A stretch of 64,000 nt of DNA from positions 806,001 through 870,000 of the forward strand of contig NZ_CP049332.1 in NCBI RefSeq assembly GCF_011064285.1, in the 5' to 3' direction. Below the pieces are notes generated by a model that saw only the letters and a program-made list of their open reading frames with translations, searched no databases and was not told the origin of the DNA. A program made the translations under genes and the position numbers. Source of the DNA: Vibrio ziniensis. GTDB lineage: Bacteria; Pseudomonadota; Gammaproteobacteria; Enterobacterales; Vibrionaceae. Positions 6,413-59,585 of this stretch are shown one piece after another (position 1 is the stretch's first letter; each line of letters starts with the position of its first letter).

Positions 6413-6479
6413 TGTTGTTGAAACAACCAGATATTTACAACCATATATTGATATTTGGTACAACCATAATTTGATATTG
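6413..6479 (+). repeat. Transposon right end with three TnsB-type sites
   Basis: Terminal TGTTG is followed by a shortened site AAACAACCAGATATT (from 6421), a full site TACAACCATATATTGATATT (6436-6455) and a full site TACAACCATAATTTGATATT (6459-6478). The last two are 23 bp apart and differ at two positions. The first site looks like a normal one that lost six bases (TAAAAT) after CAACCA. Confidence 0.85.
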
Positions 6480-6535
6480 CCTCTTCATAGTCTAGACTTA
6501 TGTAAGTTTACGACAAAATCGTGAAGAGGCAATAT
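6474..6535 (+). promoter_or_regulatory. 14-bp inverted repeat that can hide a ribosome binding site
   Basis: ATATTGCCTCTTCA (6474-6487) is perfectly repeated in inverse at 6522-6535 with a 34-base loop. The right arm contains GAAGAGG, the ribosome binding site of the ATG at 6538. The left arm overlaps the last TnsB-type site. A promoter-like pair (TTGATA at 6471, TAGACT at 6493) would start transcription inside the loop, so only read-through RNA would form the hairpin (inference). Confidence 0.6.
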
Positions 6536-6537
6536 TA

Positions 6538-6618
6538 TGTCTGCTCTGCCTTCCCCTTCTATTTCCACTCTAATTGCACTTGAAAGTGCATTTGTTACTC
6601 CTGCTCGAAACTGACTAC
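6538..6618 (+). pseudogene. Short reading frame just inside the right end, possible tnsA remnant
   Basis: A 26-codon frame beginning MSALPSPSISTLIALESAF has a good ribosome binding site (GAAGAGG, 8 bases upstream) and stops at TGA. It sits where tnsA starts in Tn7-type elements, immediately inside the right end. Its sequence resembles my memory of TnsA N-termini in this family, but this could not be verified. The downstream frames are broken, so if it is tnsA only the first residues remain. It could also be a leader peptide. Confidence 0.35.
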
Positions 6619-6685
6619 TACGACAATATGCTGTGGTGATATTTCTAAGTGTATTGAGCGTTTAACTATCGCCTAGAAGCTATAA

Positions 6686-6847
6686 CTGTGCTTTAGGTCA
6701 CTTACAAATCCAACTGAAAACCTCTTCCATTATTGTGATCAACCTATCTATTACGACCTATGTTCTAGGGCATTTAAACTGTTAGCCCACAGTTTGCAAG
6801 GTTGGTCATTTAGAGATGCAACATCCGTTATTACGGTATTTAGTTGA
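6686..6847 (+). other. Open stretch without start codon, possible gene fragment
   Basis: A 53-codon open stretch in another frame than 6538 reads like coding sequence (for example CDQPIYYDLCSRAFKLLAHS near its middle) and ends at TGA 6845. There is no start codon and a stop lies just upstream. It may be the end of a decayed gene lost between the transposon end and the PTS gene. No family was recognised. The rest of 6393-6939 holds the transposon end and the PTS promoter region. Confidence 0.3.
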
Positions 6848-6906
6848 TGTTTTTATGATTTGGCAGACGAGATTACTACCGAGTCTTTCGATTCGGTAAC
6901 AATAAA

Positions 6907-6918
6907 CAGTTATAACAA
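6907..6918 (+). promoter_or_regulatory. CAGTTATAACAA box, PTS IIC operon
   Basis: First of three copies of CAGTTATAACAA in this sugar region (others at 12112-12123 and 15190-15201). The core GTTATAAC is a palindrome. Here it lies 21 bases before the PTS IIC start, so binding could block or assist transcription initiation. Confidence 0.5.
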
Positions 6919-6939
6919 CTTAGTGAAACGGTCGAAATT

Positions 6940-8286
6940 ATGAACATTGATACAACTAAAATGCAGGATAGCTTAATGGCTATTATGCAGAAAATTGGGC
7001 AAAACAGATATTTGCAATCCATTATGAGAGGCATGATGATGGTGTTGCCTGCAACCATCATGAGTTCTTTCGCAACCCTGCTAAAAGTACTACCAATACA
7101 GGCTTACCAAGATTTTATCTTGAAACATAATCTGGCTCAGTTCTTTGATATCCCGATTAACTTCACCAACAACTTCCTAGCGGTTCTTGTCGCCTTTTCT
7201 GTTGCTTACACTCTTGCAAAAAGCTTCGATGTTGATGGATTCACCGCAGGTCTGATATCTATGATATCGTTCTTCATTCTTACACCTTACGAACTGGGTG
7301 AGATGGGACCACTGGGGCAAGCGTACTCCATTCCGAACACATGGCTGGGTGCTATGGGCTTGTTTACCGGTATCATGGTGGCGTTTATTTCCGCGCGGAC
7401 GTTCGTTTGGATCACCAAGAAAGGGTTGATTATTCGTATGCCAGACGGTGTACCTGAATTTATCTCTAAATCGTTCTCAGCTCTTGTTCCTGGTTTAGTT
7501 ATCTTAACTTCTTTCACAGTACTGTCTGCGACTATCACCATCAATGAGCTGGGGAGTGTACACCAAATTATATACGGTATTATTCAGGCTCCACTAACGG
7601 ATCTTGGTGCTGGTATCGGCTCGGTAATTATCGTTTCACTTGTTGCACAAACGCTGTGGTTCTTCGGTTTACACGGTCATGCAATCACTCTGGGTATTGT
7701 TGCTCCAATTTGGTTTGCAATGGATGCAGCTCAGCTAGCAGCATTTTCAGCGGGTGCACCAACACCAAACATTACTGGTTTTGCGTTCTTTATGACTTAT
7801 ACCGCGGGTGACTTGCTACCTCTTGCATTCATGCTTGCGTTTATGGCTAGAAGCCAGCGTTACAAAACATTGGGTCGCATCTCACTACCGCCAGCAGTGT
7901 TTACCATTGGTGAACCAATGGCATACGGTGTGCCACTAGTAATGAACTTTGCGCTTGCTATACCGTACATTCTGCTTAACTCAGTTCTTCTTGCTGCCGC
8001 TTACTACTTAACGTTGGCCGGTGTTCTTCCTGCTGTTGCGGGTGTGATGACCCCTGCTGGTATGCCAGTTATTGTATCGGGCTTTATGCAGGGTAGTTGG
8101 AAGATTGCAGCATTCCAGTTCGTTGCTCTGTTTATCCGCTTTGCTGGCTGGTACTTCTTCTTCAAGATTGCAGATCGCATTGCTTTTGCTGAAGAGACAG
8201 AAGAGGAGCGACAAGCTCTGATTGCAGAACAGAAACGTGCTCGTGAGCAATTAGAATCAGAACCATCATCAGAAGTGAGCGCATAA
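6940..8286 (+). CDS. PTS lactose/cellobiose-type permease, EIIC subunit
   Basis: Inner-membrane channel of a beta-glucoside-type phosphotransferase system; it imports and presents a disaccharide for phosphorylation. The 448 residues contain about ten hydrophobic segments and the family motifs FFGLHGHA (about 245) and GEPMAYGVPLVMN (about 325). A charged tail (EETEEERQALIAEQKRARE) follows. The matching IIB and IIA genes are 7-9 kb away (15377 and 15774) rather than adjacent. It forms an apparent operon with the rhamnosidase (5-base gap) and an AraC regulator. The RBS is weak. Substrate unknown; the neighbour suggests a rhamnosyl-glucoside. Confidence 0.9.
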   Translation: MNIDTTKMQDSLMAIMQKIGQNRYLQSIMRGMMMVLPATIMSSFATLLKVLPIQAYQDFILKHNLAQFFDIPINFTNNFLAVLVAFSVAYTLAKSFDVDGFTAGLISMISFFILTPYELGEMGPLGQAYSIPNTWLGAMGLFTGIMVAFISARTFVWITKKGLIIRMPDGVPEFISKSFSALVPGLVILTSFTVLSATITINELGSVHQIIYGIIQAPLTDLGAGIGSVIIVSLVAQTLWFFGLHGHAITLGIVAPIWFAMDAAQLAAFSAGAPTPNITGFAFFMTYTAGDLLPLAFMLAFMARSQRYKTLGRISLPPAVFTIGEPMAYGVPLVMNFALAIPYILLNSVLLAAAYYLTLAGVLPAVAGVMTPAGMPVIVSGFMQGSWKIAAFQFVALFIRFAGWYFFFKIADRIAFAEETEEERQALIAEQKRAREQLESEPSSEVSA

Positions 8287-8291
8287 GCTTT

Positions 8292-10949
8292 ATGATGATG
8301 AACAGCCTAACAGTTAACGGGAAGCTTGGAACTGTAACTATCGACACACTGCCAATTCAGTGTCGCTGGTTGGTGGATTTCAAACAGTCACACTTTACCT
8401 TCAAGCTTTCCAGTAATGGTCAAACGGCTCACATCACGGAAGAGTATAGCAACGAGAGTTGCTATACCTTGTCTGATATAGAGCTAACCGCAAGTCGCTA
8501 CTACGATATTGAAGTCACCGTGTATGGTACAAATAGTGAGGTTGAAGTTCTTAACGCTTCTTTAATCAGTGGTAATAAAGGGGAGTTCCAAGGTCGCTGG
8601 ATTACGAGTCATTCAGAGCCAGTCTCGGATGAACACTACTATCAGGATTGCCCTAACTCTATATTTAGAAAGCAGTTCACAGCAGGTAAACCAACTTATG
8701 AAGCGCTTATTCATATCGTGGGCTTGGGGTATTACACTCTTTTTGTTAATGGTCAGAAGGTTTCAAACTATGAGTTGAATAATGACTGGACCAATTACTC
8801 GGAGCTTGTGTATTACGATACCTTTGATATTTCAAGCTATCTTCAACAAGGCGAGAATGAGATTGTTGTAGAACTTGCAAATGGTTGGTACAACCCTGCA
8901 CCTTTAACTCTGTTTGGCAAATATAACTTACGACGTAATCTCACGACGGGTCAGCCGACGTTGCTTGCTGATGTTGTGCTTAAAGATCACGATAATCAAC
9001 GTGTAATATCAACAGACGTGAGTTGGGAACGTACTGCAGGCCCATATCTTTTCAATAACCTATACCTAGGTGAAGTGATTGATTTTCGATTGCTTGAACA
9101 AATTGAAAATCGCTTAGTTAATCCAGAATGGAAACCTGCCCTTGTTAGTGAAGGGCCAACCGGTACACTGAAGCCTAGCTATCTTGACAAGATATGTCGC
9201 GGAGAGGAAGTGGCTCCTAAGCATATTCACTCGCTTTCTGCTACTGATCATATAGTTGATTTCGGTACTATGATCAGTGGTTTTATCTATGCAGAGTTCA
9301 CAGCACAAGAAGGTGATGAAGTCGAGTTTCTGTATAGCGAGCAGCTTGCACAAAACGGTACTCTGGATACGGACTCAACGTTGGCAGGTTTTGTTGGTAA
9401 AGACGTGGAACCTGATGTGATCGTGCCAGGAGGTGCGGGAGCACCAAAGCGTGGAGAGCAAAGAGATCGCTGTATCTGTCGCACAGGTAAAATGCACTTT
9501 ATTAACCGTTACACCTACCACTCATTTCGCTTCGTTCAGGTGACAGGTATAACGCTTGAGCAATTGCATCAAATTAAGGCTGTGTACGCGAATACGCTGT
9601 TGTCTCCAACAGGTCGTTTTACCAGTTCAGATGAACATATTAATCGCCTATACCATGCTGCCGAAATCACGAAGCAAAATAACATTCACTCTGTTATTGA
9701 AGATTGTGCTCGTGAAAGGCTTGCCTACGGCGGCGATATGGTCGCACTCGCCCATTCGCAAGCAATGATGTTTAACTCAGCACAGCTTTATGAAAAAACC
9801 ATTAAAGACTTTATTGCTGAACAGAGAGTTAATGGCGGTTTCCCTGAAACGGCTCCTTTTATGGGGATTCAAACAAAAGGGACCGGAGAGGGTGCAGGTC
9901 CGCTTGGCTGGCAATTAGCTGTTCCTTATTTGCTTAAAACTCATTATCAATATTATGGTCAGCAAGCTCTGGTGATTGAATTGCTACCAGCTTTAGAGCG
10001 CCAAATGAAGCATTTGGATTCGCTTGACCAAGACCAGCTTGAGCAATTCTGCTTAGGCGATTGGGGCAGTAAAGTCGCGGATAAGAACAATATCAAGAAC
10101 GGTTCGCCAGCACTCTCTTTTACCGCTGCGTGTTTTTACTATTACCACCTCACGCTACTGGTTGAACTTTGTAAGGTTGCGGGTTGGGATGATAAGTATG
10201 GCAAATACAATCAACAGGCTTTGGACTATAAGCAAAAGTTGATTAACCGGTATCGTAATAATGATGGTAGCTATGCAGATAGAAGCCAAACCAGCTATGT
10301 ATTCGCGCTCTATTTTGACTTAGAGGCAGATCCTCGCCATCTGATTTTGGATCTCAAAGGCTTAATTCAAAACGCTGGGTTTGATATCGAATGTGGCATA
10401 TTTGGTCAAAGTTTCTTGTACCAAATTGCAAACCGTTGCGACCTGAATCAACTTATTTACCCTTGGTTGAGTAACTCAATTGGCATTCCAAGTATGTTGC
10501 AGGATGGTAGTGGCTCATTGAATGAATTTTTTGGAGAGAACTACAATGGTTCGTGTAACCATGCCATGTTTAGTTCGTATGTCTCATGGTTATATAGTGG
10601 GCTAGGTGGTATCTCAGTAGATAGTAATGCCTGTGCGGCAGACCGAATCACTATTCAGCCATTTTTTGAACCCAATATTGATGGTGTCAATTGTGCTTTC
10701 CAATCTGTCCGTGGGGAAATCAGTTGCGCTTGGCAGCGTGAGAAAAGCGGTAATATCACCTTGACCGTTCGTGTTCCGAAAGGGCTTAAATCAGCGCGTT
10801 TGATACTCCCTAAAGAGTGGCAAGAAACCATTCACCAATTACCAGTGAAAATAGTGAATGAAAACCTTGTGCAGTTCAACATATCTGAAACGCCAAAGTT
10901 GCAACTTACAATGAAGACTGGTTTATTAGCCGTCAACGAAAACTGCTAA
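8292..10949 (+). CDS. Alpha-L-rhamnosidase (GH78-type)
   Basis: The 885-residue product has N-terminal beta-domains typical of bacterial rhamnosidases (for example FRKQFTAGKPTYEALIHIVGLGYYTLFVNGQKV, about 117-149). An (alpha/alpha)6 barrel follows with the catalytic-region motif EDCARERLAYGGD at about 470-485, equivalent to the family DCPQRDERLGW(T)GD. A C-terminal beta-sandwich ends the protein. No signal peptide is seen, so it acts in the cytoplasm on an imported rhamnoside. It starts at the first of three consecutive ATG codons, five bases after PTS IIC. No rhamnose catabolism genes are in the window. Confidence 0.85.
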   Translation: MMMNSLTVNGKLGTVTIDTLPIQCRWLVDFKQSHFTFKLSSNGQTAHITEEYSNESCYTLSDIELTASRYYDIEVTVYGTNSEVEVLNASLISGNKGEFQGRWITSHSEPVSDEHYYQDCPNSIFRKQFTAGKPTYEALIHIVGLGYYTLFVNGQKVSNYELNNDWTNYSELVYYDTFDISSYLQQGENEIVVELANGWYNPAPLTLFGKYNLRRNLTTGQPTLLADVVLKDHDNQRVISTDVSWERTAGPYLFNNLYLGEVIDFRLLEQIENRLVNPEWKPALVSEGPTGTLKPSYLDKICRGEEVAPKHIHSLSATDHIVDFGTMISGFIYAEFTAQEGDEVEFLYSEQLAQNGTLDTDSTLAGFVGKDVEPDVIVPGGAGAPKRGEQRDRCICRTGKMHFINRYTYHSFRFVQVTGITLEQLHQIKAVYANTLLSPTGRFTSSDEHINRLYHAAEITKQNNIHSVIEDCARERLAYGGDMVALAHSQAMMFNSAQLYEKTIKDFIAEQRVNGGFPETAPFMGIQTKGTGEGAGPLGWQLAVPYLLKTHYQYYGQQALVIELLPALERQMKHLDSLDQDQLEQFCLGDWGSKVADKNNIKNGSPALSFTAACFYYYHLTLLVELCKVAGWDDKYGKYNQQALDYKQKLINRYRNNDGSYADRSQTSYVFALYFDLEADPRHLILDLKGLIQNAGFDIECGIFGQSFLYQIANRCDLNQLIYPWLSNSIGIPSMLQDGSGSLNEFFGENYNGSCNHAMFSSYVSWLYSGLGGISVDSNACAADRITIQPFFEPNIDGVNCAFQSVRGEISCAWQREKSGNITLTVRVPKGLKSARLILPKEWQETIHQLPVKIVNENLVQFNISETPKLQLTMKTGLLAVNENC

Positions 10950-10962
10950 TAAAAGGCTCATT

Positions 10963-11934
10963 ATGCTTGATGCAAAAGTACATGAACAATTGCTTGTACA
11001 TACTGACAAAGAGTTAGAGGTCCTTGAGAACAAGCCTGACTTTAGTCCGGTGTTTTTTAAACGTTTAGAGGGTGACTTCTATCGTGACCGGCATATGTTT
11101 ATTGAGAAGCATACTCGTTTTATAGCAGTTCCCATGCACTCTCATGACTTTATAGAGTTAGTCTATGTTTATAGCGGTAAAATGCGTCAAGTTGTTAACG
11201 GCAAGAGTGTTGAATTAAAAGCGGGCGAATTATTGCTGCTTAATCAATACGCTCAGCACGAAATAGAAGTTACAGGTGAAGACGATATAATAATCAACTT
11301 CATTATTGAAGCTGATTATATTGCCAGATTAATATCACTTTTTGATGATGAAAACTTGATTACTAAATTTATTTTATCTTCTATTAACGGGAGAAATAAA
11401 TCTGGTGAGCATGTTCACTTTAAAGTGAGTCATGATAATGATATTCAAAAAGCAGCCTGCAAAATTATCAATGAGATATACAGTGATAAAGTTTTAAAGC
11501 AAATGAGGGTACATTTTCTCGTTGGTTTACTTATTACTAATTTATTATCAAATGTCGATAATAGTGACTATTACATTAGCTCTAACTATATTGATTCTTT
11601 AGCTTTATCCGTGTTGAAGTATATTGATGAAAATTATCAAGACGCTAGCTTGAAAGTGATAGCAGATAAAATTAATCAGCCGAATTACAAGGTAAGCCGT
11701 CTTCTCAAGAGCTATACAGGTAAAACATTCAGTGAGTTAGTGATAGAAAAGCGTATCGAAAGAGCTATCTACCTATTGACGTATACTGATTACTCTATTA
11801 TTGATGTGATAAATATGACAGGGTATGAAAACGCATCACATTTTTATCGTGTATTTAAAGATAAATATAATGTGAGTGTAAAAGAATATCGTGATTCTAT
11901 AAAAGCTAAAGACGATGTATCATTTGATTGTTAA
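10963..11934 (+). CDS. AraC-family regulator with cupin sensor
   Basis: The 323-residue protein has an N-terminal cupin sugar-sensing domain (about 35-115, including PMHSHDFIELVYVYSGKMRQ) and a C-terminal double helix-turn-helix (about 215-315, including ASLKVIADKINQPNYKVSRL and DVINMTGYENASHFYRVFKD). It is the last gene of the IIC-rhamnosidase operon (13-base gap, AAGG before ATG) and is followed by a strong terminator. Likely activator of the sugar operons that share the CAGTTATAACAA box; the AraC gene at 17706 is the alternative. Confidence 0.9.
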   Translation: MLDAKVHEQLLVHTDKELEVLENKPDFSPVFFKRLEGDFYRDRHMFIEKHTRFIAVPMHSHDFIELVYVYSGKMRQVVNGKSVELKAGELLLLNQYAQHEIEVTGEDDIIINFIIEADYIARLISLFDDENLITKFILSSINGRNKSGEHVHFKVSHDNDIQKAACKIINEIYSDKVLKQMRVHFLVGLLITNLLSNVDNSDYYISSNYIDSLALSVLKYIDENYQDASLKVIADKINQPNYKVSRLLKSYTGKTFSELVIEKRIERAIYLLTYTDYSIIDVINMTGYENASHFYRVFKDKYNVSVKEYRDSIKAKDDVSFDC

Positions 11935-11950
11935 TTTGTCATGTTAGTTA

Positions 11951-11988
11951 AAAATAAAAGCCAGCTTAATGCTGGCTTTTATTTTTTT
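11951..11988 (+). terminator. Intrinsic terminator of the IIC-rhamnosidase-araC operon
   Basis: AAAAGCCAGC and GCTGGCTTTT flank TTAAT and are followed by ATTTTTTT; the stem is also A/T-extended so it could act in both directions. Confidence 0.9.
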
Positions 11989-12111
11989 AGATTGAAAACA
12001 ACCTATTCATGTTAATAAATGTGAGCTTACTCAACACTTATCACTTCTTACTCTATACGATTTGCTTACTAAATCACACTGTGCACCAACCGACAAACAC
12101 AAGTGCAACAT

Positions 12112-12123
12112 CAGTTATAACAA
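12112..12123 (+). promoter_or_regulatory. CAGTTATAACAA box, porin operon
   Basis: Second copy, 145 bases before the porin start. The flanking TGCACCAA and TGCAACA elements are shared with the copy upstream of PTS IIB, which supports a common regulator. Confidence 0.55.
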
Positions 12124-12268
12124 TACTACCTCCTATTAATTCATAATGAATTTATTGATTAATGACTAACTGTAAAGGCTACAGATTAGGTCTGTTCAAT
12201 AAATATGAGATGAGCAAATAAATAAGTAAAAGTACATCTCAGATTATAAAAATAACGGAGTGAAATTA

Positions 12269-13543
12269 ATGAAAAAGTTGAATTTAGTAGTGGCTATTTC
12301 AGCGGCACTTACTGCAACTGCATCCCTACCAACAATTGCTGATGATTCTGTACAGTTCCATGGTTTTGCTATGGCTGCTGGTGATTTTCAAAGCGAACTA
12401 GATAGACCAAAAAACCTTGCTTTACATACAGATATTACCGGTCCAAACCAAGATCCACGCGGTAAGATGGGTGACCTTGGCAACACATACTGGCATGACT
12501 ACTTTACTGCACTCTCACTAAACAAACGCTTTGATGGTGTTGAGGAAGGTGAGTGGGCTGATTTTACTTTTGAATTGCTAGGCTATGGTGATAAATCTGT
12601 TGAAGCTTCACAAATGTACGTTCAATACGGTGGTTTGGATTTCCTACCGGAGAATGCTCGTGTTTGGGCGGGTCGTAAGTATGCTGGTGAGCGTATCCGC
12701 AATCTGGCTTACAATATTCGTGAAATCAATGTGGATTCCGGTATTGGCTATAACAGTGACAATTTGGATGTAACTATTGGCTACAACCAAATTGACTGGG
12801 CAGACCTAAACGATAATCAGATGGGATTGATTCAAGCTGTAGAAGGTTCACGAGTAGTATTTGATTTTGCTTATCGCTTTGGTAACGCCGAAGTGGGTGC
12901 AAACTACATGCAAGAGAAAGACGATCCGATTTTCCAACAAGAGCGTGAAGCATACAGTGCGTTTGCTAAATACAAATTCGGTTCATTCTTGGGGCTTGCT
13001 GGTAATTCAAGTGCGATGATTCAAGGTGGTAAAGGTCTGATTGCTCAGTATCTAAGTACTGCTCGCATTAGTGGTTTAAGTGAAGAAGACGACAAATCTA
13101 TGCGTTTTTCTTACTACGGTATGATTCACCAGTTTGAAGGTTTCACTATTGAACCATCATTTGTTTATGAATATACCGATCGTGCAGAACAGCGCCGAGC
13201 GACTAGTGTTCCAAATACTCAAGCTGGTGGTACTTATGAGTTTGGCAATGCTGAGGAGCAAGGGTTATTCGCTGCACTGAGTGTACATCAAGCACTAACC
13301 AACAATATTTCTATGCAGTACGAAGCTGTTTACGCAAACAAAACTAACCGTGATGGTGTCGAAGGCGTAGATGGCAGCATGTACAAATTGGCAATGGGTC
13401 CATCACTTCAGTTGAAGAGTGTTCCATGGGCAGTGCCTGTAACTAATATCAGCGTTGCATACGTTGGTGGTGATGAAGAAATAACGGATCTTCCTGTTGA
13501 GTCTGAGTGGCGCTTCGGTTACCGCTTTGAAGTCTTTTTCTAA
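12269..13543 (+). CDS. Maltoporin-like carbohydrate porin
   Basis: Outer-membrane sugar channel of the LamB type. The 424 residues start with a signal peptide (about 1-24, ending SLPTIADD). Beta-strand repeats follow with LamB-like signatures: VQFHGFAMAAGD near the N-terminus and LPENARVWAGRKYAGER near 130. The final residue is Phe (EVFF), the usual outer-membrane barrel end. The frame is open from a GTG at 12260, but CGGAG is correctly spaced for the ATG at 12269. The exported esterase follows 71 bases downstream. It probably admits oligosaccharides for the PTS. Confidence 0.85.
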   Translation: MKKLNLVVAISAALTATASLPTIADDSVQFHGFAMAAGDFQSELDRPKNLALHTDITGPNQDPRGKMGDLGNTYWHDYFTALSLNKRFDGVEEGEWADFTFELLGYGDKSVEASQMYVQYGGLDFLPENARVWAGRKYAGERIRNLAYNIREINVDSGIGYNSDNLDVTIGYNQIDWADLNDNQMGLIQAVEGSRVVFDFAYRFGNAEVGANYMQEKDDPIFQQEREAYSAFAKYKFGSFLGLAGNSSAMIQGGKGLIAQYLSTARISGLSEEDDKSMRFSYYGMIHQFEGFTIEPSFVYEYTDRAEQRRATSVPNTQAGGTYEFGNAEEQGLFAALSVHQALTNNISMQYEAVYANKTNRDGVEGVDGSMYKLAMGPSLQLKSVPWAVPVTNISVAYVGGDEEITDLPVESEWRFGYRFEVFF

Positions 13544-13614
13544 TAATTCGTTGTTAATCTATGTGTAGTAAGTTCGATCCCATTTGGGAGTGAACATATT
13601 CAAGGGATAAGTAT

Positions 13615-14571: not shown

Positions 14572-14638
14572 TTTAATGAGTTATAAAGCTGTCTTATTTG
14601 GGTTCATGTAAAGTCCCAATCAACTTCATTCTTGTATT

Positions 14639-52160: not shown

Positions 52161-52210
52161 CACCTAGGCTTTGTAATTCCCCAATATTTATATTTGCGTA
52201 AACCTAGGTG
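52161..52210 (+). promoter_or_regulatory. Inverted repeat that covers a ribosome binding site
   Basis: CACCTAGG (52161-52168) and CCTAGGTG (52203-52210) are 34 bases apart. The right arm contains AGGTG, the ribosome binding site of the DUF3737 gene (ATG 52216), so folding of the leader could block translation. Confidence 0.4.
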
Positions 52211-52215
52211 TAATT

Positions 52216-53109
52216 ATGTCTGCATTAACAATCAATCTAGATAAATTTAGTAATTATCAAAAAATCTCTGACCGATTTTATGAAGGTGAAAGACCTTTGT
52301 ATGCTGAAGAAAACAAATATCTTCACCGTGTACGCTTTTATCCGGGCGAATCTGCGCTAAAACACACCGACAATATTATGGTTAAGCATTGTGAATTTAT
52401 GGGCAAGTATCCATTTTGGCACAGTAACCAAATCGTCATTGAGCAAAGTATTTTTACTGTTTATGCACGAGCGGCAATTTGGTACACCAATAATTTAATA
52501 ATGAATAACTGCGTTATAGAAGCGCCTAAGATGTTCCGTCGTGTGAACAACTTACAAATTGAGAACACTCGATTTCCTAATGCTGGTGAAACTTTGTGGA
52601 ACTGTGACAATGTCACTATGAAAAACGTTGAGATGCGAGGCGCAGATTACGTATTCATGAATTGTGAAAATGTAGAGATCGATGGTTTCAAACTACAAGG
52701 AAATTACTCATTCCAAGATGCCAAAAATGTCACGATTAGAAATGCATATCTAGATTCTAAAGATGCATTTTGGGGTACAGAAAATGTGACTGTTTATGAT
52801 AGTGTTTTGGATGGTGAATATTTAGGCTGGCACTCTAAAAACTTACGTTTGGTTAACTGTACCATCCGTGGTGAACAGCCGTTGTGTTACGCAACAGACC
52901 TAATTATGGAAAATTGTGTGATGGAAGAAACCGATCTTTGCTTTGAGTATTCTTCGTTAGAAGCTGAGATAGTTTCTGACATCATTAGCGTTAAAAATCC
53001 ATTGTCTGGTTCAATTAAGGCGTATTCAATTGGTGAAATTATCCTTGATAAAAACAACAAAAATCCGGGTGGCTGCACCATTCAAACAGGAGTTGAGGCT
53101 GGCGTTTAA
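52216..53109 (+). CDS. DUF3737 right-handed beta-helix protein
   Basis: The 297-residue protein is built of short repeating strands (NIMVKHCEFMG, NQIVIEQSIFT, NVTMKNVEMRG, NVEIDGFKLQG, NVTIRNAYLDS, NVTVYDSVLDG, LRLVNCTIRG), as in the DUF3737 family of pectate-lyase-like folds. No signal peptide and no catalytic motif recognised. It overlaps the MalY/PatB gene by one base (TTTAATGA), an arrangement that implies co-translation. Confidence 0.85.
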   Translation: MSALTINLDKFSNYQKISDRFYEGERPLYAEENKYLHRVRFYPGESALKHTDNIMVKHCEFMGKYPFWHSNQIVIEQSIFTVYARAAIWYTNNLIMNNCVIEAPKMFRRVNNLQIENTRFPNAGETLWNCDNVTMKNVEMRGADYVFMNCENVEIDGFKLQGNYSFQDAKNVTIRNAYLDSKDAFWGTENVTVYDSVLDGEYLGWHSKNLRLVNCTIRGEQPLCYATDLIMENCVMEETDLCFEYSSLEAEIVSDIISVKNPLSGSIKAYSIGEIILDKNNKNPGGCTIQTGVEAGV

Positions 53110-54275
53110 TGAAACAATTTGATTTTGATGAAGTTGTAGATAGGCAAGGTACTGGCAGCGTTAAATGGGATAGTGTAGAGAATGCTTCTATTCTACCTAT
53201 GTGGGTGGCGGATATGGATTTTCGCACCGCACCAGCCATTGTCAACGCTTTGCAAAAGCGTGTTGAACACGGCATCTTTGGTTATGCAAAGGTGCCAGAT
53301 GCGTATTACGAAGCCACTATTAACTGGTTTTCAAGAAAGCACAGCTTTCATATTGAGAGAGACTGGATACTCTATACATCAGGTGTTGTCCCTGCTATTT
53401 CTGCCATTCTTAAAGCTCTTACCAATCCCGGCGATGGAGTCATCGTTCAAACGCCAGTCTACAACTGTTTCTTCAGTTCCATTCGAAATATGGGATGCCA
53501 GTTGGTTGAGAACCCTTTGGTGAACTGTGATGGGCACTATCAAGTAGATTTTGAAGATTTAGAGAACAAGGCTTCAAGATCGGATGTGACAGTAATGATA
53601 CTGTGTAATCCACATAACCCAGTTGGTCGAGCTTGGACAAAGCAAGAATTGTTTAGAATAGGCGAAATTTGCTTTAAACACGGGGTCAAAGTTATCAGTG
53701 ATGAAATCCATTGTGACCTAATGTTTCCGGGCAATCATCATCAACCCTTTGCCGCTTTAGGTGATGAGTTTTTGATGAATACAGTATCGACACATTCACC
53801 AAGTAAGTCTTTTAATATTGCCGGACTGCAGATTGCTAATATTGTTACCGCAAACAAAGGGTTAAAGCAAAAAGTTGATCGTGCTCTTAACATCCACGAA
53901 GTCTGTGACGTCAACCCGTTTGGTGTAGCTGCATTAGTCGCAGCTTATAACCAAGGAGAAGAGTGGCTAAACGAATTAAACCACTATTTATATGAAAACT
54001 ATCTCGCCGTGGTTGAGTTTGTTCAACATCAATTACCAAAACTTAGCGTAGTCCAGCAAGAAGCGACGTACTTAGCTTGGATTGATTGCAGAAAACTGGA
54101 TATTCCATCAGACAAAATTGGTGAAATGCTGCTGAAAGAAGGCGCGTTGATGATTAACCAAGGTACCGTTTACGGTGAATCGGGTGATGGATACATTCGA
54201 CTCAATATGGCTTGCCCGAGATCGCTCCTTATTGAAGGGCTGAAACGCATGGCAAGTGTATTAGGTGACAAATAA
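53109..54275 (+). CDS. MalY/PatB-type PLP-dependent C-S beta-lyase
   Basis: The 388-residue fold-type-I aminotransferase-like enzyme has VADMDFRTAPAIVNAL near the N-terminus, LCNPHNPVGRAWTK (about 162-175), SDEIHCDLMFPG (about 198-209) and the PLP lysine in SPSKSFNIAGLQ (about 230-241). Family members cleave cystathionine or related thioethers, or act on substrates with sulfur side chains. It starts inside the stop codon of the DUF3737 gene and precedes a cyclophilin-like gene by 23 bases. Confidence 0.9.
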   Translation: MKQFDFDEVVDRQGTGSVKWDSVENASILPMWVADMDFRTAPAIVNALQKRVEHGIFGYAKVPDAYYEATINWFSRKHSFHIERDWILYTSGVVPAISAILKALTNPGDGVIVQTPVYNCFFSSIRNMGCQLVENPLVNCDGHYQVDFEDLENKASRSDVTVMILCNPHNPVGRAWTKQELFRIGEICFKHGVKVISDEIHCDLMFPGNHHQPFAALGDEFLMNTVSTHSPSKSFNIAGLQIANIVTANKGLKQKVDRALNIHEVCDVNPFGVAALVAAYNQGEEWLNELNHYLYENYLAVVEFVQHQLPKLSVVQQEATYLAWIDCRKLDIPSDKIGEMLLKEGALMINQGTVYGESGDGYIRLNMACPRSLLIEGLKRMASVLGDK

Positions 54276-54298
54276 TACTAAATGGAGTGTGTGACATC

Positions 54299-54775
54299 AT
54301 GAAGAGAACAATCTGGGCAAAGCCTATAACTGCTTTATCAATGGTGTTGTCAGTCATGTCGAGTTCACATAGCTTTGCCAATACCATACCCGCTAATGGC
54401 GGAGAAAATATCGGAGAAAGAACGATGAAGATTCGTTTTGTGTTTGACGATCGAACTGTTACGGCGACACTGAATGACAGCCCAAGTACAAGAGATTTTA
54501 TTGCGCAATTGCCTTTAACTTTTGACCTTGAAGACTACGCAAGTACTGAAAAGATTGCTTACTTACCAAGCAAGCTTACTCGTGAAGGTGCGCCTACTGG
54601 TGTGAGTTCTAAAGCGGGTGATATTTCCTATTACGCGCCTTGGGGCAACTTGGTCATTTTCTACAAGAATTTTGGCTATGCTTCGGGTCTTATTAACTTA
54701 GGTAAGTTAGATGGTGGCTTGGATAGGTTTACATCTAACGGTTCTATGAAAGTGACCATTGAATCTGCCGAGTAA
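54299..54775 (+). CDS. Exported cyclophilin-like fold protein
   Basis: The 158-residue product has a signal peptide (about 1-26, ending SSHSFAN) and a Cyclophil_like-type domain (MKIRFVFDDRTVTATLNDS, FIAQLPLTFDLEDYASTEKI, ISYYAPWGNLVIFYKNFGY). Family function is poorly known. The frame opens at a GTG at 54287; the ATG at 54299 follows TGGAG at suitable spacing. Third gene of the DUF3737-MalY unit, closed by a strong terminator. Confidence 0.8.
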   Translation: MKRTIWAKPITALSMVLSVMSSSHSFANTIPANGGENIGERTMKIRFVFDDRTVTATLNDSPSTRDFIAQLPLTFDLEDYASTEKIAYLPSKLTREGAPTGVSSKAGDISYYAPWGNLVIFYKNFGYASGLINLGKLDGGLDRFTSNGSMKVTIESAE

Positions 54776-54785
54776 AGCAAACGAA

Positions 54786-54817
54786 TAAAAAACCACCATT
54801 GGCACGGTGGTTTTTTT
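54786..54817. terminator. Bidirectional terminator
   Basis: AAAAAACCACC and GGTGGTTTTTTT pair around ATTGGCAC. It serves the plus-strand operon and the convergent MFS gene. Confidence 0.9.
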
Positions 54818-54861
54818 ATGGGAGTTATTCAATCGTGCAATAGCATAAAAAGATGCGACTC

Positions 54862-56038
54862 TTATTCGACAGCACGTTTCGGGGTTGAGCGTAAGTACTT
54901 AACTAAAACTACAACAGAACCACATAAAGCCAACGCACCGTACCCATAGGCAATTTGTAGAAGGTCTAAATGATTGGATAATCTTCCCGCGATTAGTGTT
55001 GGAATTGCTGCGCCAACGTATGATGACGCATAGATAACGGAAAAGACATTAGCTCTTTCCTCAGCCTTCAAACCAGTAACCATAGTTCCAATACTTCCTG
55101 TTAAAACAAGCCCCTGAGCAATTCCTGCAAAAACACTTGCCAAAAGAAATGCACTTAAAAGACCTAACTGCAATGAAAGCAATATACAGCCAACAAACAG
55201 CGTGAATGACAGCATCCCAGTACGTTGAGCTTGTGTGCTTGACATTCGCCCAGCAATTGAAGCACCGATCGAGCTTGGTGCCATTATGGATGCAAATACA
55301 AATGCGGCCGCTACCGCGCTTTGAGAATGAAGTTGTTCACGCGCCATGGCTGGGCCAAAAGCTTGGAAGAATCCGCCGAGTGCCCAAGTACAAACAAAGG
55401 TACATGCTGCAACAGGAAATGCCTTTCGAGCGGAAAGCGGTATCTCGAAATTAGGCTTAATAGAAGCAATAGCACATCGTTTCTTTACTTCTAAAAATGA
55501 GAAATAGACAGATTAGATTTAGCAGCAACGCAATCACGAATCCGATTTGACGTGGGTAAGGGGCGTGCTCGAATAGAATTCCCGAACCGACACCACCAAA
55601 AGTTAACCCGGTCATAGGTCCACAGCTAATAATCGCGGGAGCAATCCAAGAACGAACGGAATGCGAATGATCAACTAACCAAGAAGTCAACGCGGTAGAG
55701 GCTAGTCCACAAGCTAGTCCCTGTGATAATCGCCCCAAAAGCAATGGCGCTGCGCTATGAAGATTGAGAAAGAACAGCGTGGAAAGTCCTGCTAGCAACA
55801 ATGACAAAACTGCAACTGGTTTTCGCCCCATGTAGTTGGATAGGCGACCAAATAAAACTAGCGCAGCTACCGCGCCAATAAAATAAACAACTGAGCTGAG
55901 TGAAAGTTGGAAATAGGTAATGGCATCTTGTGCCTGGTAAACACCATACAATGGAATAGGAACTGCTGATGTTACGTATGTCACCATCAAAGACAGCGCG
56001 GTGCTTACGAATGAAAATCGATGAGATGTATATTGCAA
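54862..56038 (-). pseudogene. MFS transporter, frameshifted
   Basis: Two frames make one MFS protein of about 390 residues with twelve helices. The N-terminal half has FGRLSNYMGRKPVAVLSL (the family A-loop) and RLSQGLACGLASTALTSWL; the C-terminal half starts near CTWALGGFFQAFGPAMA. The shift is at about 55479-55490 (TTTCTTTACTT), where one extra base moves the frame to a stop in SKETMCYCFY. Removing it restores a continuous reading (IFRSKKRCAIASIKPNFEIP). Likely a drug or metabolite exporter. It converges with the MalY operon. Decay or sequencing error not distinguishable. Confidence 0.8.
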
Positions 56039-56527
56039 CGAGGTACCCCCACAAATTCGAATTAAAGAAGACTCGTGAATGGGACTGAAGACTCTAACTG
56101 CAAGCGTTAAAGTATAGCGATTGGTGTCGAGTACAAAGCTTATGACGAGTATGAATATTTTAAATCTCTCGATGACAGCCAGTAATGCCTAATCTTCCTT
56201 AATCGTTGTCCAATCTTGTCTTTGTTTTAAGGGGTGGTGTACCTTAAAATCTAAGGAAATAATAATTTAAATATAAAAGACAATCTAAATATCTGGATTG
56301 TTAAAATAAAAAATTTTTATTTAGTCAATGATTATTGGTTGTGTTATTTGTATCATTTTGTAAATTACTGTTTTTATATAATTCTGAAATATATTTGTCA
56401 TTTAAGATGGGAAGATTAGGCAATAATTAGATTTTTCTAGGCAATAGAGTATCTGCTTTTCATTGTAGATTAATTAAATCACGCAAGTATGTCGTGATTT
56501 GATAGTTATTGGTATAGGGAGAATCAT
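56039..56527. other. Divergent promoter region of MFS and exported CMD operon
   Basis: About 490 bases, very AT-rich in 56240-56400, without a gene. It holds a full AraC-type site at 56417-56444 and a half-site (TAGGCA, minus strand) at 56186-56191. Confidence 0.5.
56417..56444 (+). promoter_or_regulatory. AraC-type operator, TAGGCAA direct repeat (21 bp)
   Basis: TAGGCAA occurs at 56417-56423 and again at 56438-56444, both exact, 84 bases before the start of the exported CMD gene. Confidence 0.6.
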
Positions 56528-57244
56528 ATGCTCAGTTTGAACATTGTTATTAAGAAATTATCTGTATTTGTTTTGGGAACATCACTACTACTTGCAAGCC
56601 ATCTAACTGTCGCAGCCGACAGTTTCACACAGAAAGAAAAAGCTATTATTCCAATCGCTGCCTTTGCCGCTAGTGGCGAGATAGACAAGCTAAAAGTGAG
56701 TTTAGCCGATGGTCTGGAAGCTGGTCTAACTATCAATGAAACGAAAGAGATTTTAGGTCAGTTATATGCCTATGCAGGCTTTCCTCGTAGTTTGAATGCG
56801 TTATCAGCATTTATGCAAGTGGTTCAAGAACGTGAAAGTAAAGGCATAAAAGATGTTGTAGGCGCAGAACCATCACCCCTACCAACAGACAGAACCAGTT
56901 TAGAATTTGGTAAAGATAATCAAACAAAATTGATTGGTGTTGAAGTTAAAGGTGCTTTATTTGATTTCTCTCCTCAAATTGATGAATACCTAAAGTCACA
57001 CTTGTTTGGCGATATTTTTCAACGTGATGTTCTTTCGTGGAAACAACGTGAAATTGCAACAATAGCAACGTTGGCAAATATAAAAGGTGTCAACAGCCAA
57101 TTAGCTTCTCATTACAATATCAGCATGAATAATAATGTCTCTGTAAGTGAGCTAAATGAATTTATTTCGATTCTCTCAACGCAAGTTGGTCAGGAAGTGG
57201 CTGATAATGCTCAGCAAGTATTAAATACCGTATTAAATAAATAA
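56528..57244 (+). CDS. Exported carboxymuconolactone decarboxylase-like protein
   Basis: The 238-residue paralogue of 51381 has an added signal peptide (about 1-30, ending LTVAADS) and the same two CMD repeats (AGLTINETKEILGQLYAYAG; SWKQREIATIATLANIKGV). No CxxC. It would act in the periplasm. It is first of a unit with a periplasmic cupin (12-base gap). Such cupin-CMD pairs are common in Gram-negative bacteria and are thought to handle reactive or aromatic compounds. Confidence 0.88.
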   Translation: MLSLNIVIKKLSVFVLGTSLLLASHLTVAADSFTQKEKAIIPIAAFAASGEIDKLKVSLADGLEAGLTINETKEILGQLYAYAGFPRSLNALSAFMQVVQERESKGIKDVVGAEPSPLPTDRTSLEFGKDNQTKLIGVEVKGALFDFSPQIDEYLKSHLFGDIFQRDVLSWKQREIATIATLANIKGVNSQLASHYNISMNNNVSVSELNEFISILSTQVGQEVADNAQQVLNTVLNK

Positions 57245-57256
57245 TAAGGAGATATT

Positions 57257-57754
57257 ATGAAAAATAACTTGGCTTTAATAATGCTATCTGGCGTTATTTC
57301 TTTATCTTCATTTGTTTCTAGCGCAGTTGCTTCTGACAGCAAGTCAAATGAGCAACAGGTCTACCGAGCAAAAGATCTTAATTCATTTGTTGGTCCGGAA
57401 AATCTGTTTACTGGGCATGTCAAAGTGGACATGTTGTTTCCAGAAAATGATGTGGCTAACTACAGCGCTGCCTACGTCACATTTGATAAAGGCGCGAGAA
57501 CAGCTTGGCACACGCATCCGGCGGGTCAGCATATGATCGTAACATCTGGCGTAGCTTTAACGGGAACAAGAGATGGCAAAGTTATCCGTTTTGCAGAGAA
57601 TGAAAGCGTTTGGTGCCCACCAGGTATCGACCATTGGCATGGTGCTACACCTGAAGCTCCAATGACACATCTTGTTGTTACTGCGTCAAAAGATGGCAAA
57701 AACGTAATTTGGAAAGAGAAAGTTACTGACGAGCAATATACATCAGGTCAATAA
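57257..57754 (+). CDS. Exported cupin-domain protein
   Basis: The 165-residue protein has a signal peptide (about 1-26) and one cupin barrel. Metal ligands are seen in AWHTHPAGQHMIV (His, His, His) and DHWHGATPEAPMTHL. Similar proteins lie next to CMD-like genes and are annotated as (R)-mandelonitrile lyase-like or oxidase-like cupins. AAGGAG is correctly spaced. It shares an operon with the exported CMD protein and ends in a terminator. Confidence 0.88.
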   Translation: MKNNLALIMLSGVISLSSFVSSAVASDSKSNEQQVYRAKDLNSFVGPENLFTGHVKVDMLFPENDVANYSAAYVTFDKGARTAWHTHPAGQHMIVTSGVALTGTRDGKVIRFAENESVWCPPGIDHWHGATPEAPMTHLVVTASKDGKNVIWKEKVTDEQYTSGQ

Positions 57755-57773
57755 CTTATCATTTAATTAAACA

Positions 57774-57811
57774 ACAACTCATCACTGACTAGAGCGGTGA
57801 TGAGTTGTTTT
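57774..57811 (+). terminator. Intrinsic terminator after the cupin gene
   Basis: ACAACTCATCAC and GTGATGAGTTGT form a 12-bp stem followed by TTTAACTT. Confidence 0.85.
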
Positions 57812-57838
57812 AACTTGCTAAATAATAGGTGTATCCAT

Positions 57839-58450
57839 ATGGGTATAAAATTAAGTTTTGCAAAATTATCTACTCTACTTTTCACAATACAGATACTGTT
57901 TATTGCTTTGACAAATATGGCTAATGCCACCGAAGCACCCAAGACTAACATTAAAACTCTAGTGATAGTTTCTCACCCATATCCAGAACGCTCAGTAATG
58001 ACAAAAGGTTTGCAACAAGCTGCCGAAAGTGTTGAAGGGGTAACCGTAAGAAACTTGGAAACGCTTTATGGCTTTGATACAAGAGCGATTGATGCACAGA
58101 AAGAAAAGGAACTCACTAGAGCGCATGACCGTATTGTTTTTATGTTTCCTACACACTGGTTCAATATTACGCCGATGATGAAAGCTTATATGAATGATGT
58201 CTGGGGTAGCGTGGGACCTGGATTGTGGCAAGGCAAAGAAATGCTCCTTGTTACTACTGCTGCTGGCGGCAGTTCAACATATGGTGAATCAGGAAGAATC
58301 GGTGTGGCTCTAGAAGATGTCTTTACACCAATGAAGGCAAGTGCATTGCACGCAGGGATGACTTTTTTGAAACCATTAGCTTTTCAATCGGTTTCTAGTT
58401 CTAAACTTTCTGATTACCAACAGCAGTTGATTGAGCGTTTGCAGCGTTAA
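57839..58450 (+). CDS. Exported flavodoxin-fold NAD(P)H:quinone oxidoreductase-like protein
   Basis: The 203-residue product has a signal peptide (about 1-30, ending NMANATEAP) and a flavodoxin-like domain of the KefF/MdaB type (LVIVSHPYPERSVMTKGLQ, FMFPTHWFNITPMMKAYMNDV, LLVTTAAGGSSTYGESG). An open frame starts at 57797, but that region is inside the terminator hairpin; AATAGGTG precedes the ATG at 57839. Exported members of this usually cytoplasmic family are unusual; a Sec route would need FMN to be bound outside. Confidence 0.8.
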   Translation: MGIKLSFAKLSTLLFTIQILFIALTNMANATEAPKTNIKTLVIVSHPYPERSVMTKGLQQAAESVEGVTVRNLETLYGFDTRAIDAQKEKELTRAHDRIVFMFPTHWFNITPMMKAYMNDVWGSVGPGLWQGKEMLLVTTAAGGSSTYGESGRIGVALEDVFTPMKASALHAGMTFLKPLAFQSVSSSKLSDYQQQLIERLQR

Positions 58451-58510
58451 TGTCGAATAACTTTTGAACCTTCTCACATTGGCTCTTGGAATATATAAAG
58501 ACATAGTTAA

Positions 58511-59275
58511 ATGAAAAAGTTATTGAAAAATATGGCTGTTTTGTTCGTTGGATATACGGCATTTCAACCGGTAGCCTTTGCAGCAAAGTCACCCTGGTCA
58601 ATTGGTGTCGGTGCTAGCTATTCTCCCGCTGTATATCGGGGGACGCCAACAAATAGAATGGTAATACCGATTCTAGGTTACGAAGGTGAACATTTTTTTA
58701 TGCGAGGGTTCGGAATGGGCTATCGGATTAATCCTCAAGGTTCGACTCATAATCTGGTGATAAGGGCGATTTATGACCCGAGAACATTTAAGCCTGGTGA
58801 TTCTGACATAGAAGAAATGAAGTTGTTAGACGAACGGGACGACACTGTTTTGGCTGGTTTGAGTTATCAATATTCAACATTGTTCGGTATGTTAGAAACG
58901 TCGGTAGGTGCGGATGTACTAGGCGTTCATAATGGGGTATACGGAGAGGTTGCCTGGCGTTTACCATTGCGATTTAAAAATGCGGGAATTACGCCTGCTT
59001 TTGGCTATTCATATAATGACAATAAGCTGAATCAGCACCTTTATGGCGTATCTCAGGCAGAATCGAATAGAACTAACGGCAGAATAAATGCTTTTGATAT
59101 AAACGGAAGCGGTCAGTTTTTTGTGGGCTTATCAGCTTATTACGTGATTGCTGATCAGCTGACAGTAAATGGAGGAGTACGTTACACAAATTTAGAGGGT
59201 GGTATTGAAAACAGCCCAGTTCTGGATTCCACCGAAGCTACTACTGCAACTATAGGGATTACTTACTCTTTTTAA
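58511..59275 (+). CDS. MipA/OmpV-family outer-membrane protein
   Basis: The 254-residue protein has a signal peptide (about 1-25, ending AFAAKSP) and alternating beta strands with family features (WSIGVGASYSPAVYRGTPTN, IPILGYEGEHFFMRGFGMGY) and a C-terminal Phe (TIGITYSF). MipA/OmpV proteins are outer-membrane barrels linked to murein synthesis scaffolds or envelope stress. Last gene inside the transposon, 196 bases from the innermost left-end site. Confidence 0.9.
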   Translation: MKKLLKNMAVLFVGYTAFQPVAFAAKSPWSIGVGASYSPAVYRGTPTNRMVIPILGYEGEHFFMRGFGMGYRINPQGSTHNLVIRAIYDPRTFKPGDSDIEEMKLLDERDDTVLAGLSYQYSTLFGMLETSVGADVLGVHNGVYGEVAWRLPLRFKNAGITPAFGYSYNDNKLNQHLYGVSQAESNRTNGRINAFDINGSGQFFVGLSAYYVIADQLTVNGGVRYTNLEGGIENSPVLDSTEATTATIGITYSF

Positions 59276-59470
59276 TCTTAAATATATGAATGTAGATTTA
59301 TCGGCTGAGTTATAAAGAGATAGCGGTGAAGTGTACCTTAATTACCAAGCGACTTTGTCATGTGTTAATTCGCTACTGAATTTTTCGGTGAGGTGAGGGG
59401 AGTTCAGAGTCATTTTTCTGTAAGAAACTTTCTTACAGAAAATTTAACTCCCAAATCCAATTATCACAAA

Positions 59471-59585
59471 AATATCAACATATGGTTGTATTTTTTATAA
59501 CTATCTGAATTAAAGTAAATCACAAATATCATTTTATGGTTGTATCAACAAAAATGATGAAACAACCATTACGGTTGTATCAACA
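59471..59585 (-). repeat. Transposon left end with TnsB-type sites
   Basis: On the minus strand TACAACCATATGTTGATATT (59490-59471) and TACAACCATAAAATGATATT (59544-59525) are 54 bp apart; the second is preceded by TGTTGA, making a complete canonical terminus at 59550. A further terminal copy (TGTTGATACAACCGTAATGG, from 59585) lies 35 bp outside it and abuts the target duplication. Confidence 0.85.

What the first reader, a model, noticed from the sequence alone, without database searches (positions are those of the whole stretch)
6413..59585. A 53-kb Tn7-like element at guaC with complete ends but no transposition or CRISPR machinery
Seen: two termini starting TGTTG, matching iterated sites in inverted orientation, a 5-bp GGAAA duplication exactly abutting both termini, and about 45 cargo genes with no tns, tniQ or cas gene. 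Known: guaC is an attachment gene of I-F3 CRISPR-associated Tn7-like transposons, and Tn7 duplicates 5 bp. Inference: this is a metabolic island that moved by guide-directed transposition and lost its machinery, or is moved in trans by a relative elsewhere in the cell. A non-autonomous element of this size carrying a coherent catabolic pathway would widen what these transposons are known to spread.
Basis: partly seen in the sequence, partly recalled or inferred. Interest (0 to 1): 0.95.

Follow-up and report, generated by a model that had tools for sequence, protein, structure and literature searches.

The report
Engine-less CRISPR-transposon island beside guaC
A 53-kb island of genes predicted to break down sugars and plant phenolics in a Vibrio chromosome lies between the damaged ends of a Tn7-like transposon, keeps only the first 25 codons of its transposase gene tnsA, and was likely delivered beside the guaC gene by RNA-guided transposition before its engine was lost, as has happened in many relatives.

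Summary
Both termini, inverted repeat sites and the flanking GGAAA copies are in the sequence, and no working transposition or CRISPR gene was found between them. The 'complete ends' are not complete: the first right-end TnsB site lacks 6 bp, and the second and third left-end sites are fused by a 26-bp deletion. The outer 35 bp on the right include a 31-bp palindromic footprint, inferred to be an older element, so the GGAAA pair may belong to that one. Decisive find: window 6537-6614 encodes MSALPSPSISTLIALESAFVTPARN*, the first 25 codons of the tnsA that follows the right end in intact I-F3a (Tn6677-type) relatives. The island is a derivative of a CRISPR-associated transposon. Searches of the complete genome found no TnsA, TnsB, TniQ, Cas7 or guaC guide, while relatives have them. 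Ten of 11 relatives carry a guide matching guaC 47-50 nt upstream of the insertion. Of 25 genus guaC sites with this right end, 7 keep the engine, 3 a damaged one and 15 have lost it. Right ends are full in 10 of 10 with engine genes but in 5 of 17 without. This favours a relic with fixed cargo over an element still moved in trans.

The parts
5349..6392 (+). guaC (GMP reductase), the attachment gene
   Evidence: tblastn and locus search
6333..6365 (+). sequence matched by the guaC guides of relatives (protospacer); 47 nt to 6413, 50 nt to 6416
   Evidence: 10 of 11 relatives carry a match with 6-12 mismatches of 33; 79 of 87 mismatches at codon position 3
6408..6412 (.). left copy of the GGAAA target-site duplication
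6413..6415 (+). extra TGT; inferred to be the first 3 bp of the older footprint element's right terminus (alternative: tandem TGT duplication)
   Evidence: relatives' right terminus aligns to 6416
6416..6485 (+). right end (guaC-proximal): TnsB sites RE1 (6-bp deletion), RE2, RE3
   Evidence: alignment with 13 relatives
6537..6614 (+). tnsA stub: first 25 codons, then a stop; homology ends at about 6612
6940..20085 (+). cargo module 1: PTS IIC, alpha-L-rhamnosidase relative, AraC-type regulators, LamB-type porin, esterase, PTS IIB and IIA, 6-phospho-beta-glucosidase, SASA-type esterase
   Evidence: related DNA in G183 and G220
20749..32081 (.). cargo module 2: acetyltransferase, split LLM oxidoreductase, FMN_red/FMN_bind/FAD_binding_2 reductase (24238-26685), FMN_red protein, ApbE-like, LysR regulators, aldo-keto reductase, alcohol dehydrogenase
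32369..49975 (.). cargo module 3: metallo-hydrolases, tannase/feruloyl esterase family (39935-41587), Gfo/Idh dehydrogenases, IolE-like protein, nucleoside-permease-type MFS, LacI, DeoR, MarR, SDR
50042..59275 (.). cargo module 4: AraC, carboxymuconolactone decarboxylase family x2, DUF3737, PatB C-S lyase, split MFS, cupin, KefF-type oxidoreductase, OmpV-like
59464..59550 (-). left end: LE1 and one fused LE2/LE3 site (26-bp deletion against 14 of 16 relative ends aligned)
59555..59585 (+). 31-bp palindromic footprint: a right-terminal and a left-terminal TnsB site head to head
59586..59590 (.). right copy of the GGAAA target-site duplication
59591..59640 (+). DNA that normally follows guaC, with a terminator-like hairpin, displaced 53 kb from guaC
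   Evidence: matches the DNA just after guaC in unoccupied relatives

Best explanation
The island is the remains of a type I-F3a (Tn6677-family) CRISPR-associated transposon that was likely inserted beside guaC by guide-RNA-directed transposition; its engine is gone from codon 26 of tnsA onward, probably by deletion after insertion, which would leave the cargo fixed. Shown: tnsA stub, end sites, relatives' guides matching this guaC, insertion at the expected distance, no engine found in the complete genome, damage in both ends, a 31-bp footprint next to the left end. Inferred: that an RNA guide placed it; that an older element (now the footprint) arrived first and the large element then landed at or 3 bp inside its right terminus; that the damaged ends no longer work; that the cargo is kept for its metabolic use.
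For: tnsA stub at 6537-6614, 72% identical over 25 aa to tnsA at the same place in intact relatives; right end 85-93% identical in the twelve best relatives; relatives' TnsB best matches the PDB chain named IF3A Tn6677 TnsB (1130.7 bits) and their TniQ and Cas8/5 the chains of 6lnb (734.3 and 798 bits; that 6lnb is the Tn6677 complex is recalled); 10 of 11 relatives have a guaC guide matching window 6333-6365, 47-50 nt from the insertion; mismatches fall on wobble positions (79 of 87); own genome without TniQ, TnsA (7, 64), TnsB (35), Cas7 (63) or guide (62), with relatives positive; RE1 and LE2/LE3 damage; 15 of 25 guaC sites in the genus with this right end have likewise lost the engine.
Against: The stub is short (25 aa), though its DNA match runs on from the terminus to 6612. 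The deletion's inner border is not identified: nothing fetched matches 6618-6732. The cargo may partly have been added after insertion. The deletion could predate insertion. The 5-bp duplication of the large element itself is imperfect if its termini are 6416 and 59550 (AATGT against AAAAT), while it is exact in 8 of 9 relatives. Two engine-less elements with another type of end (L023, L051) and five with this type keep three right-end sites, so erosion is not universal.
Confidence: 0.86

Rival explanations
1. The deletion came first and the engine-less 53-kb element was inserted by the proteins and guide of another I-F3a transposon in the same cell, which has since been lost (movement in trans).
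For: Another engine-less guaC element has a clean duplication: the 4.7-kb one in Vibrio harveyi NBRC 15634, GAAAT on both sides. Two elements met at this site (footprint and island), so a helper was probably once present.
Against: No helper gene or guide found in the genome now; both ends damaged; right ends of engine-less elements are eroded in 12 of 17 against 0 of 10 with engine genes, not expected for elements under selection to move; no match spanning the stub junction is listed outside the own genome among 227 genus genomes, with two candidate places scored per genome.
Confidence: 0.1
2. A genomic island of another origin whose borders only look like transposon ends.
For: The cargo has relatives (65-81% DNA identity in the first module) in G183 and G220 whose matches do not include the transposon ends; GC content of island and flanks is alike (0.411 against 0.409 and 0.433).
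Against: Shared right end plus tnsA start at 85-93% identity with the best relatives, at the same spot after guaC (right end +22 to +27 after the last codon in 24 of 25 genus places, +42 in G020); duplication; empty sites.
Confidence: 0.02
3. The element kept only its ends and stub, and most of the 53 kb was added later by other mobile elements or recombination between modules.
For: Modules lie in another order in G183 (window 41837-46569 beside 6733-20042); several regulators suggest separate operons.
Against: No transposase or integrase among the 47 ORFs annotated; a motif scan of the window finds terminal motifs only at the known ends and footprint plus two single weak look-alikes at 29424 and 55099, and no internal array.
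Confidence: 0.25

Closest known systems
Tn6677 (VchCAST), type I-F3a; the element of Vibrio cholerae HE-45 at guaC/IMPDH (that the two are the same is recalled)
   Same: same att gene, three TnsB sites per end in relatives, 5-bp duplication, guide to guaC in relatives; Tn6677 TnsB is the best PDB match of a relative's TnsB; HE-45 element at this locus described in PMC6360697 (passages read); three sites per end stated in PMC13370975 (passages read)
   Different: no tnsBC, tniQ, cas or CRISPR; tnsA reduced to 25 codons; damaged RE1 and LE2/LE3; 53 kb of catabolic cargo
Engine-less guaC elements found here: V. harveyi NBRC 15634 (4.7 kb), V. rotiferianus CAIM 577, P. profundum ATCC BAA-1252, unnamed G041, G196, G173
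   Same: right end directly after guaC, followed by a tnsA stub or a trace of its start, and no further engine hit in the DNA held
   Different: different breakpoints and different interiors, which suggests independent losses
Metabolic gene cluster with a mini I-F system at the same locus in V. cholerae 490-93 (PMC6360697, passage read)
   Same: metabolic cargo at guaC
   Different: that region keeps the I-F genes; its Tn7-like genes and ends could not be located there (short contig)

Membership tests
Type I-F3a CRISPR-associated transposon | inverted arrays of TnsB sites with TGTTGA termini at both ends | tested here: met
   but RE1 and LE2/LE3 are damaged
Type I-F3a CRISPR-associated transposon | 5-bp target-site duplication | tested here: inconclusive
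   GGAAA pair is exact but may belong to the adjacent footprint; for termini 6416 and 59550 the pair is AATGT/AAAAT
Type I-F3a CRISPR-associated transposon | insertion about 50 bp downstream of a guide-matched att gene (guaC) | tested here: met
   47-50 nt, with guides taken from relatives
Type I-F3a CRISPR-associated transposon | tnsA, tnsB, tnsC | tested here: not met
   only tnsA codons 1-25 in the window; TnsA and TnsB not found elsewhere in the genome; TnsC searched in the window only
Type I-F3a CRISPR-associated transposon | tniQ-cas8/5-cas7-cas6 and CRISPR with att guide | tested here: not met
   no hit to any of these proteins in the window; TniQ, Cas7 and guide not found in the genome
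Non-autonomous element moved in trans | intact ends | tested here: not met
   6-bp and 26-bp deletions; function not assayed
Non-autonomous element moved in trans | helper in the same genome, or several copies | tested here: not met

The most novel reading that the evidence does not exclude
RNA-guided transposons act as one-way delivery vehicles at guaC: after delivery the engine is repeatedly shed by deletions that begin inside tnsA, the TnsB-site arrays then collapse by recombination between their own repeats, the cargo stays as a permanent chromosomal island, and some elements shrink to a 31-34-bp palindrome of the two terminal sites between intact duplications, by a specific but unknown process. 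Most visible I-F3a history at guaC would then be in such relics, which surveys that start from tnsB cannot see.
Probability: 0.3. Interest if true: 0.75.

Novelty: new variant of a known kind. Interest (0 to 1): 0.55.

Why it matters
Through a tnsA stub it shows directly that a large metabolic island is what remains of a CRISPR-associated transposon, and that such engine loss is common at this site (15 of 25 genus sites with this right end). A survey that looks for ends around tnsB (Benler et al., PMC8649781, one section read) would miss these, so the lasting contribution of guide-directed transposition to Vibrio gene content is probably underestimated. The 31-34-bp footprints give a sequence tag for past occupation and raise a testable question about how donor sites are repaired.

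Tried and rejected
Rejected: coincidental repeats (tnsA stub and end homology exclude it); a working element in this genome (no engine found); 'complete ends' (alignment shows deletions); 6413 and 59585 as the ends of one element (the relatives' right terminus aligns to 6416, and most left-end matches stop at 59550-59555). An insertion with one extra base at each end and duplication AAATG (6410-6414 and 59552-59556) also fits the letters but implies other termini than the relatives have; left open. Led nowhere: source of the cargo-side breakpoint (6618-6732 matches nothing fetched); records with this right end in the plasmid collection (no match); a first guide scan with a flanking-repeat pattern (one search stopped with an error, replaced). 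The first strict footprint search found only the own genome in 227; the relaxed one found 7 of 329.

Rows left out of counts. Right-end matches lie in 32 genomes including the own; 25 enter the guaC tally. Left out: G130 (guaC lay on two fetched pieces; it has tnsABC relatives but no TniQ hit), and G219, G112, G115, G078, G201, G184 plus second places in G196, G020, G133 and G045 (no complete guaC 3' end beside the right end in the fetched DNA). Of the named guaC loci, two Photobacterium were added to the right-end count. Left out there and looked at afterwards: L045 (tnsA complete, tnsB to the contig end, full 76-bp end) and L040 (TnsABC, TGTAAA-type end with three sites), which fit; L008, L031 and L054 (no engine hit, degenerate ends), which fit; L023 and L051 (tnsA stubs, TGTAAA-type ends with three sites), which do not fit; L033 (contig ends after 383 bp); L034 and L039 (footprints). 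Relatedness is not removed from the tallies: five of the ten engine-bearing right ends are identical; with identical sequences merged by hand the contrast is 6 of 6 against 5 of 15 (p 0.012; 0.0004 unmerged).
Full report
WHAT WAS CHECKED. The window lies in a two-contig genome of 4.65 Mb rated 100% complete (C2:806001-870000); the genus is Vibrio by its guaC relatives and the genus set, the species unnamed. guaC ends at 6392. GGAAA stands at 6408-6412 and 59586-59590, and repeat sites of the ACAACCATA-TTGATA kind lie on both inner sides in inverted orientation. The joined host flanks resemble empty sites of other species (Vibrio neptunius, Vibrio sp. J1-1 and others). So the element call is right.

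THE PARENT. Using 6413-12000 as a DNA query, 32 of 227 genus genomes, the own included, gave matches within the right end (counted by me from the listing; 82 genomes matched the query somewhere, the rest by short or unrelated stretches or by cargo). The twelve best other than the own are 85-93% identical, and most of them end at window 6612. In intact relatives such as G120 (L127) and G020 (L130) the order after guaC is right end, tnsA, tnsB, tnsC, two further genes, a guide in degenerate repeats, CRISPR, cas6, cas7, cas8/5, tniQ. TniQ, TnsB and Cas8/5 are identified by PDB matches (734.3, 1130.7 and 798 bits); TnsB's best match is named IF3A Tn6677 TnsB. TnsA matches only a TnsAB fusion of another system. 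TnsC, Cas7 and Cas6 are named by position and size. This puts the parent in type I-F3a. guaC and yciA are the I-F3a attachment genes (review PMC11406308, passages read).

THE STUB. Window 6537-6614 reads MSALPSPSISTLIALESAFVTPARN and a stop. This is the start of tnsA, 25 codons, where G120 reads MSALPFLSIATLLELETAFDTPARNLTKSRGKN. A search of the window with relatives' TnsA, TnsB, TnsC, TniQ, Cas8/5, Cas7 and Cas6 finds only this stub. The island is therefore a derivative that lost its engine, not an element that never had one.

NO ENGINE FOUND IN THE CELL. TniQ: none in the own genome, present in 89 of 227 genus genomes. TnsB: none, present in 96 of 227 at any similarity. TnsA: none, present in 5 of the 9 genomes searched. 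Cas7: none, present in 5 of 9, one of them only 29% identical. A degenerate pattern fitting both guaC and its guides finds guaC alone in the own genome and at least guaC plus a guide in each of the four relatives searched. TnsC, Cas6 and Cas8/5 were not searched genome-wide.

GUIDE AND DISTANCE. Ten of 11 relatives searched carry a stretch between degenerate repeats that matches window guaC 6333-6365 with 6 to 12 mismatches of 33; G133, whose fetched piece shows no guaC, has none. In 20 shuffles of the protospacer against two loci, one reached 11 mismatches, two reached 12 and the rest none within 12, so the 12-mismatch case (G051) is not significant by itself; its place and repeats support it. 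Of 87 mismatches, 79 fall on the third codon position. The stretch ends 47 nt before 6413 and 50 nt before 6416; published spacings are 49 bp (PMC12774636, passages read) and typically about 50 bp (PMC8649781, section read, which also gives 50-60 bp for its predictions).

DAMAGED ENDS. Aligned with 13 relatives, the window lacks 6 bp inside RE1; twelve of the 13 keep the array at full length and the other, G173, has a fused array. At the left end, 14 of 16 relative ends aligned have separate LE2 and LE3 sites; the window, G041 and one end in G172 have one fused site. In Tn6677 all sites except RE3 are needed for activity (preprint PMC13370975, passage read), so loss of function is likely, but was not tested here.

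HOW COMMON. Of 25 genus places where this right end follows guaC in the fetched DNA, 7 have hits to all seven engine proteins (G120, G152, G020, G046, G063, G065, G051; in G152 the Cas8/5 match is in two pieces and in G051 the TnsA match starts at residue 10), 3 have damaged sets (G043 and G028 with broken tnsA, G028 also without tniQ and with part of cas8/5, G045 with frame breaks), and 15 have tnsA fragments or none and no full set (G140 keeps most of tnsA in pieces, G090 tnsA in two pieces and the first 150 aa of TnsB). DNA held downstream of guaC in the 15 ranges from 0.6 kb (G190) and 2.4 kb (G127) to 57 kb, so short pieces could hide distant genes; but the genome-wide TnsB search lists no full-length TnsB of 60% or more identity in any of these 15 genomes except G133, where it lies on another contig. 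The right end is the full 76 bp with three sites in 10 of 10 places with engine genes and in 5 of 17 without (15 genus places plus Photobacterium profundum and P. kishitanii). Seven of the 12 eroded ones have a 33-bp array of one site, the same or nearly the same sequence in five of them. Rows left out, including two engine-less elements of another end type that keep three sites, are told in Tried and rejected. This erosion is what one expects of relics rather than of elements that are still moved.

THE OUTER 35 BASES. Most left ends of relatives match the window up to 59550-59555. Beyond 59550 lies AAAA and then TGATGAAACAACCATTACGGTTGTATCAACA (59555-59585). Such head-to-head pairs occur in 7 of 329 family genomes, the own included, all 31 to 34 bp long although the pattern allowed 26 to 42, with no hit to the reversed pattern in the rows listed. 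Four of the other six directly follow guaC, and three of the seven have identical 5-bp flanks (TGAAA, AAAAT and the uninformative TTTTT); four do not. By identical sequence two of them are Enterovibrio coralii CAIM 912 (L039) and Grimontia marina CECT 8713 (L034). Tandem elements are real at this site: in G045 a left end, ACAAG and another right end follow each other, and ACAAG also precedes the first right end. I therefore read the window as an older element, now a footprint with the GGAAA pair, into whose right terminus the large element (6416-59550) landed. Its own duplication would be AATGT against AATGA with two extra A; this is inference and alternatives are open. In nine relatives with both ends read, the 5-bp pair is exact in eight and off by one base in G041.

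CARGO. 47 ORFs were annotated with NCBIfam and 10, eight of them inside the element, with Pfam. Module 1 (6940-20085) has a lactose/cellobiose-type PTS, an alpha-L-rhamnosidase relative, a 6-phospho-beta-glucosidase above its cut-off, a LamB-type porin and esterases: use of rhamnosylated beta-glucosides is a fair guess. Others: tannase/feruloyl esterase family, a three-domain FMN_red-FMN_bind-FAD_binding_2 reductase (best PDB match urocanate reductase) with an ApbE-like protein nearby, Gfo/Idh dehydrogenases, an IolE-like protein, carboxymuconolactone decarboxylase family. Many matches are below curated cut-offs, so substrates are guesses. The split LLM oxidoreductase and MFS genes suggest decay. 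Relatives of module 1 and of 41837-46569 lie in G183 in another order and with no transposon end in the match.

LITERATURE. Searches (PMC open papers only) listed no paper whose title or abstract start is about engine-less I-F3 islands or 31-34-bp footprints; I read passages, and one section, of seven papers, no whole text. This does not show that none exists.

VERDICT. A decayed, probably immobile I-F3a transposon that left its cargo at guaC. It is a delivered island, not a working CRISPR-associated transposon, and fails the membership test for the latter.

Noticed in passing
59555-59585; L219 (G246), L220 (G252), L221 (G269), L222 (G273), L223 (G285), L224 (G302): 31-34-bp palindromes made of two terminal TnsB sites (about 13-14-bp arms, 4-6-bp middle), mostly at guaC, some with identical 5-bp flanks; L223 seems to hold a second one of the TGTAAA type beside it. 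Origin unknown; aborted gap repair is a guess.
   Followed up: partly
L183 (G045), L182 (G065), L187 (G020), L159 (G200): Left end of one element followed within a few bases by the right end of another, in three cases of another end type: stacked insertions despite reported target immunity.
   Followed up: partly
L005 11065-15751 (Vibrio harveyi NBRC 15634): 4.7-kb guaC element with both ends, exact GAAAT duplication and no engine hit.
   Followed up: partly
L129 (G043) and L133 (G028): tnsA matches split by about 1.5-1.6 kb; in G043 residues 50-91 appear on both sides of the gap.
   Followed up: no
G020:C1:36300; L198; L043 11041 and 17771: Second copies or lone 3' parts of guaC, or of its downstream terminator region, near elements.
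   Followed up: no
L191 (G130): Element just after guaC with TnsABC relatives (55-69% identity) but no TniQ hit in that genome and a left end about 10.6 kb away.
   Followed up: no
60121-61432: Two overlapping minus-strand ORFs in different frames outside the island, possibly a frameshifted gene; no family match for the first.
   Followed up: no
32369-33421: Metallo-beta-lactamase-fold protein, VarG-type match far below its curated cut-off (181.7 of 750 bits).
   Followed up: no
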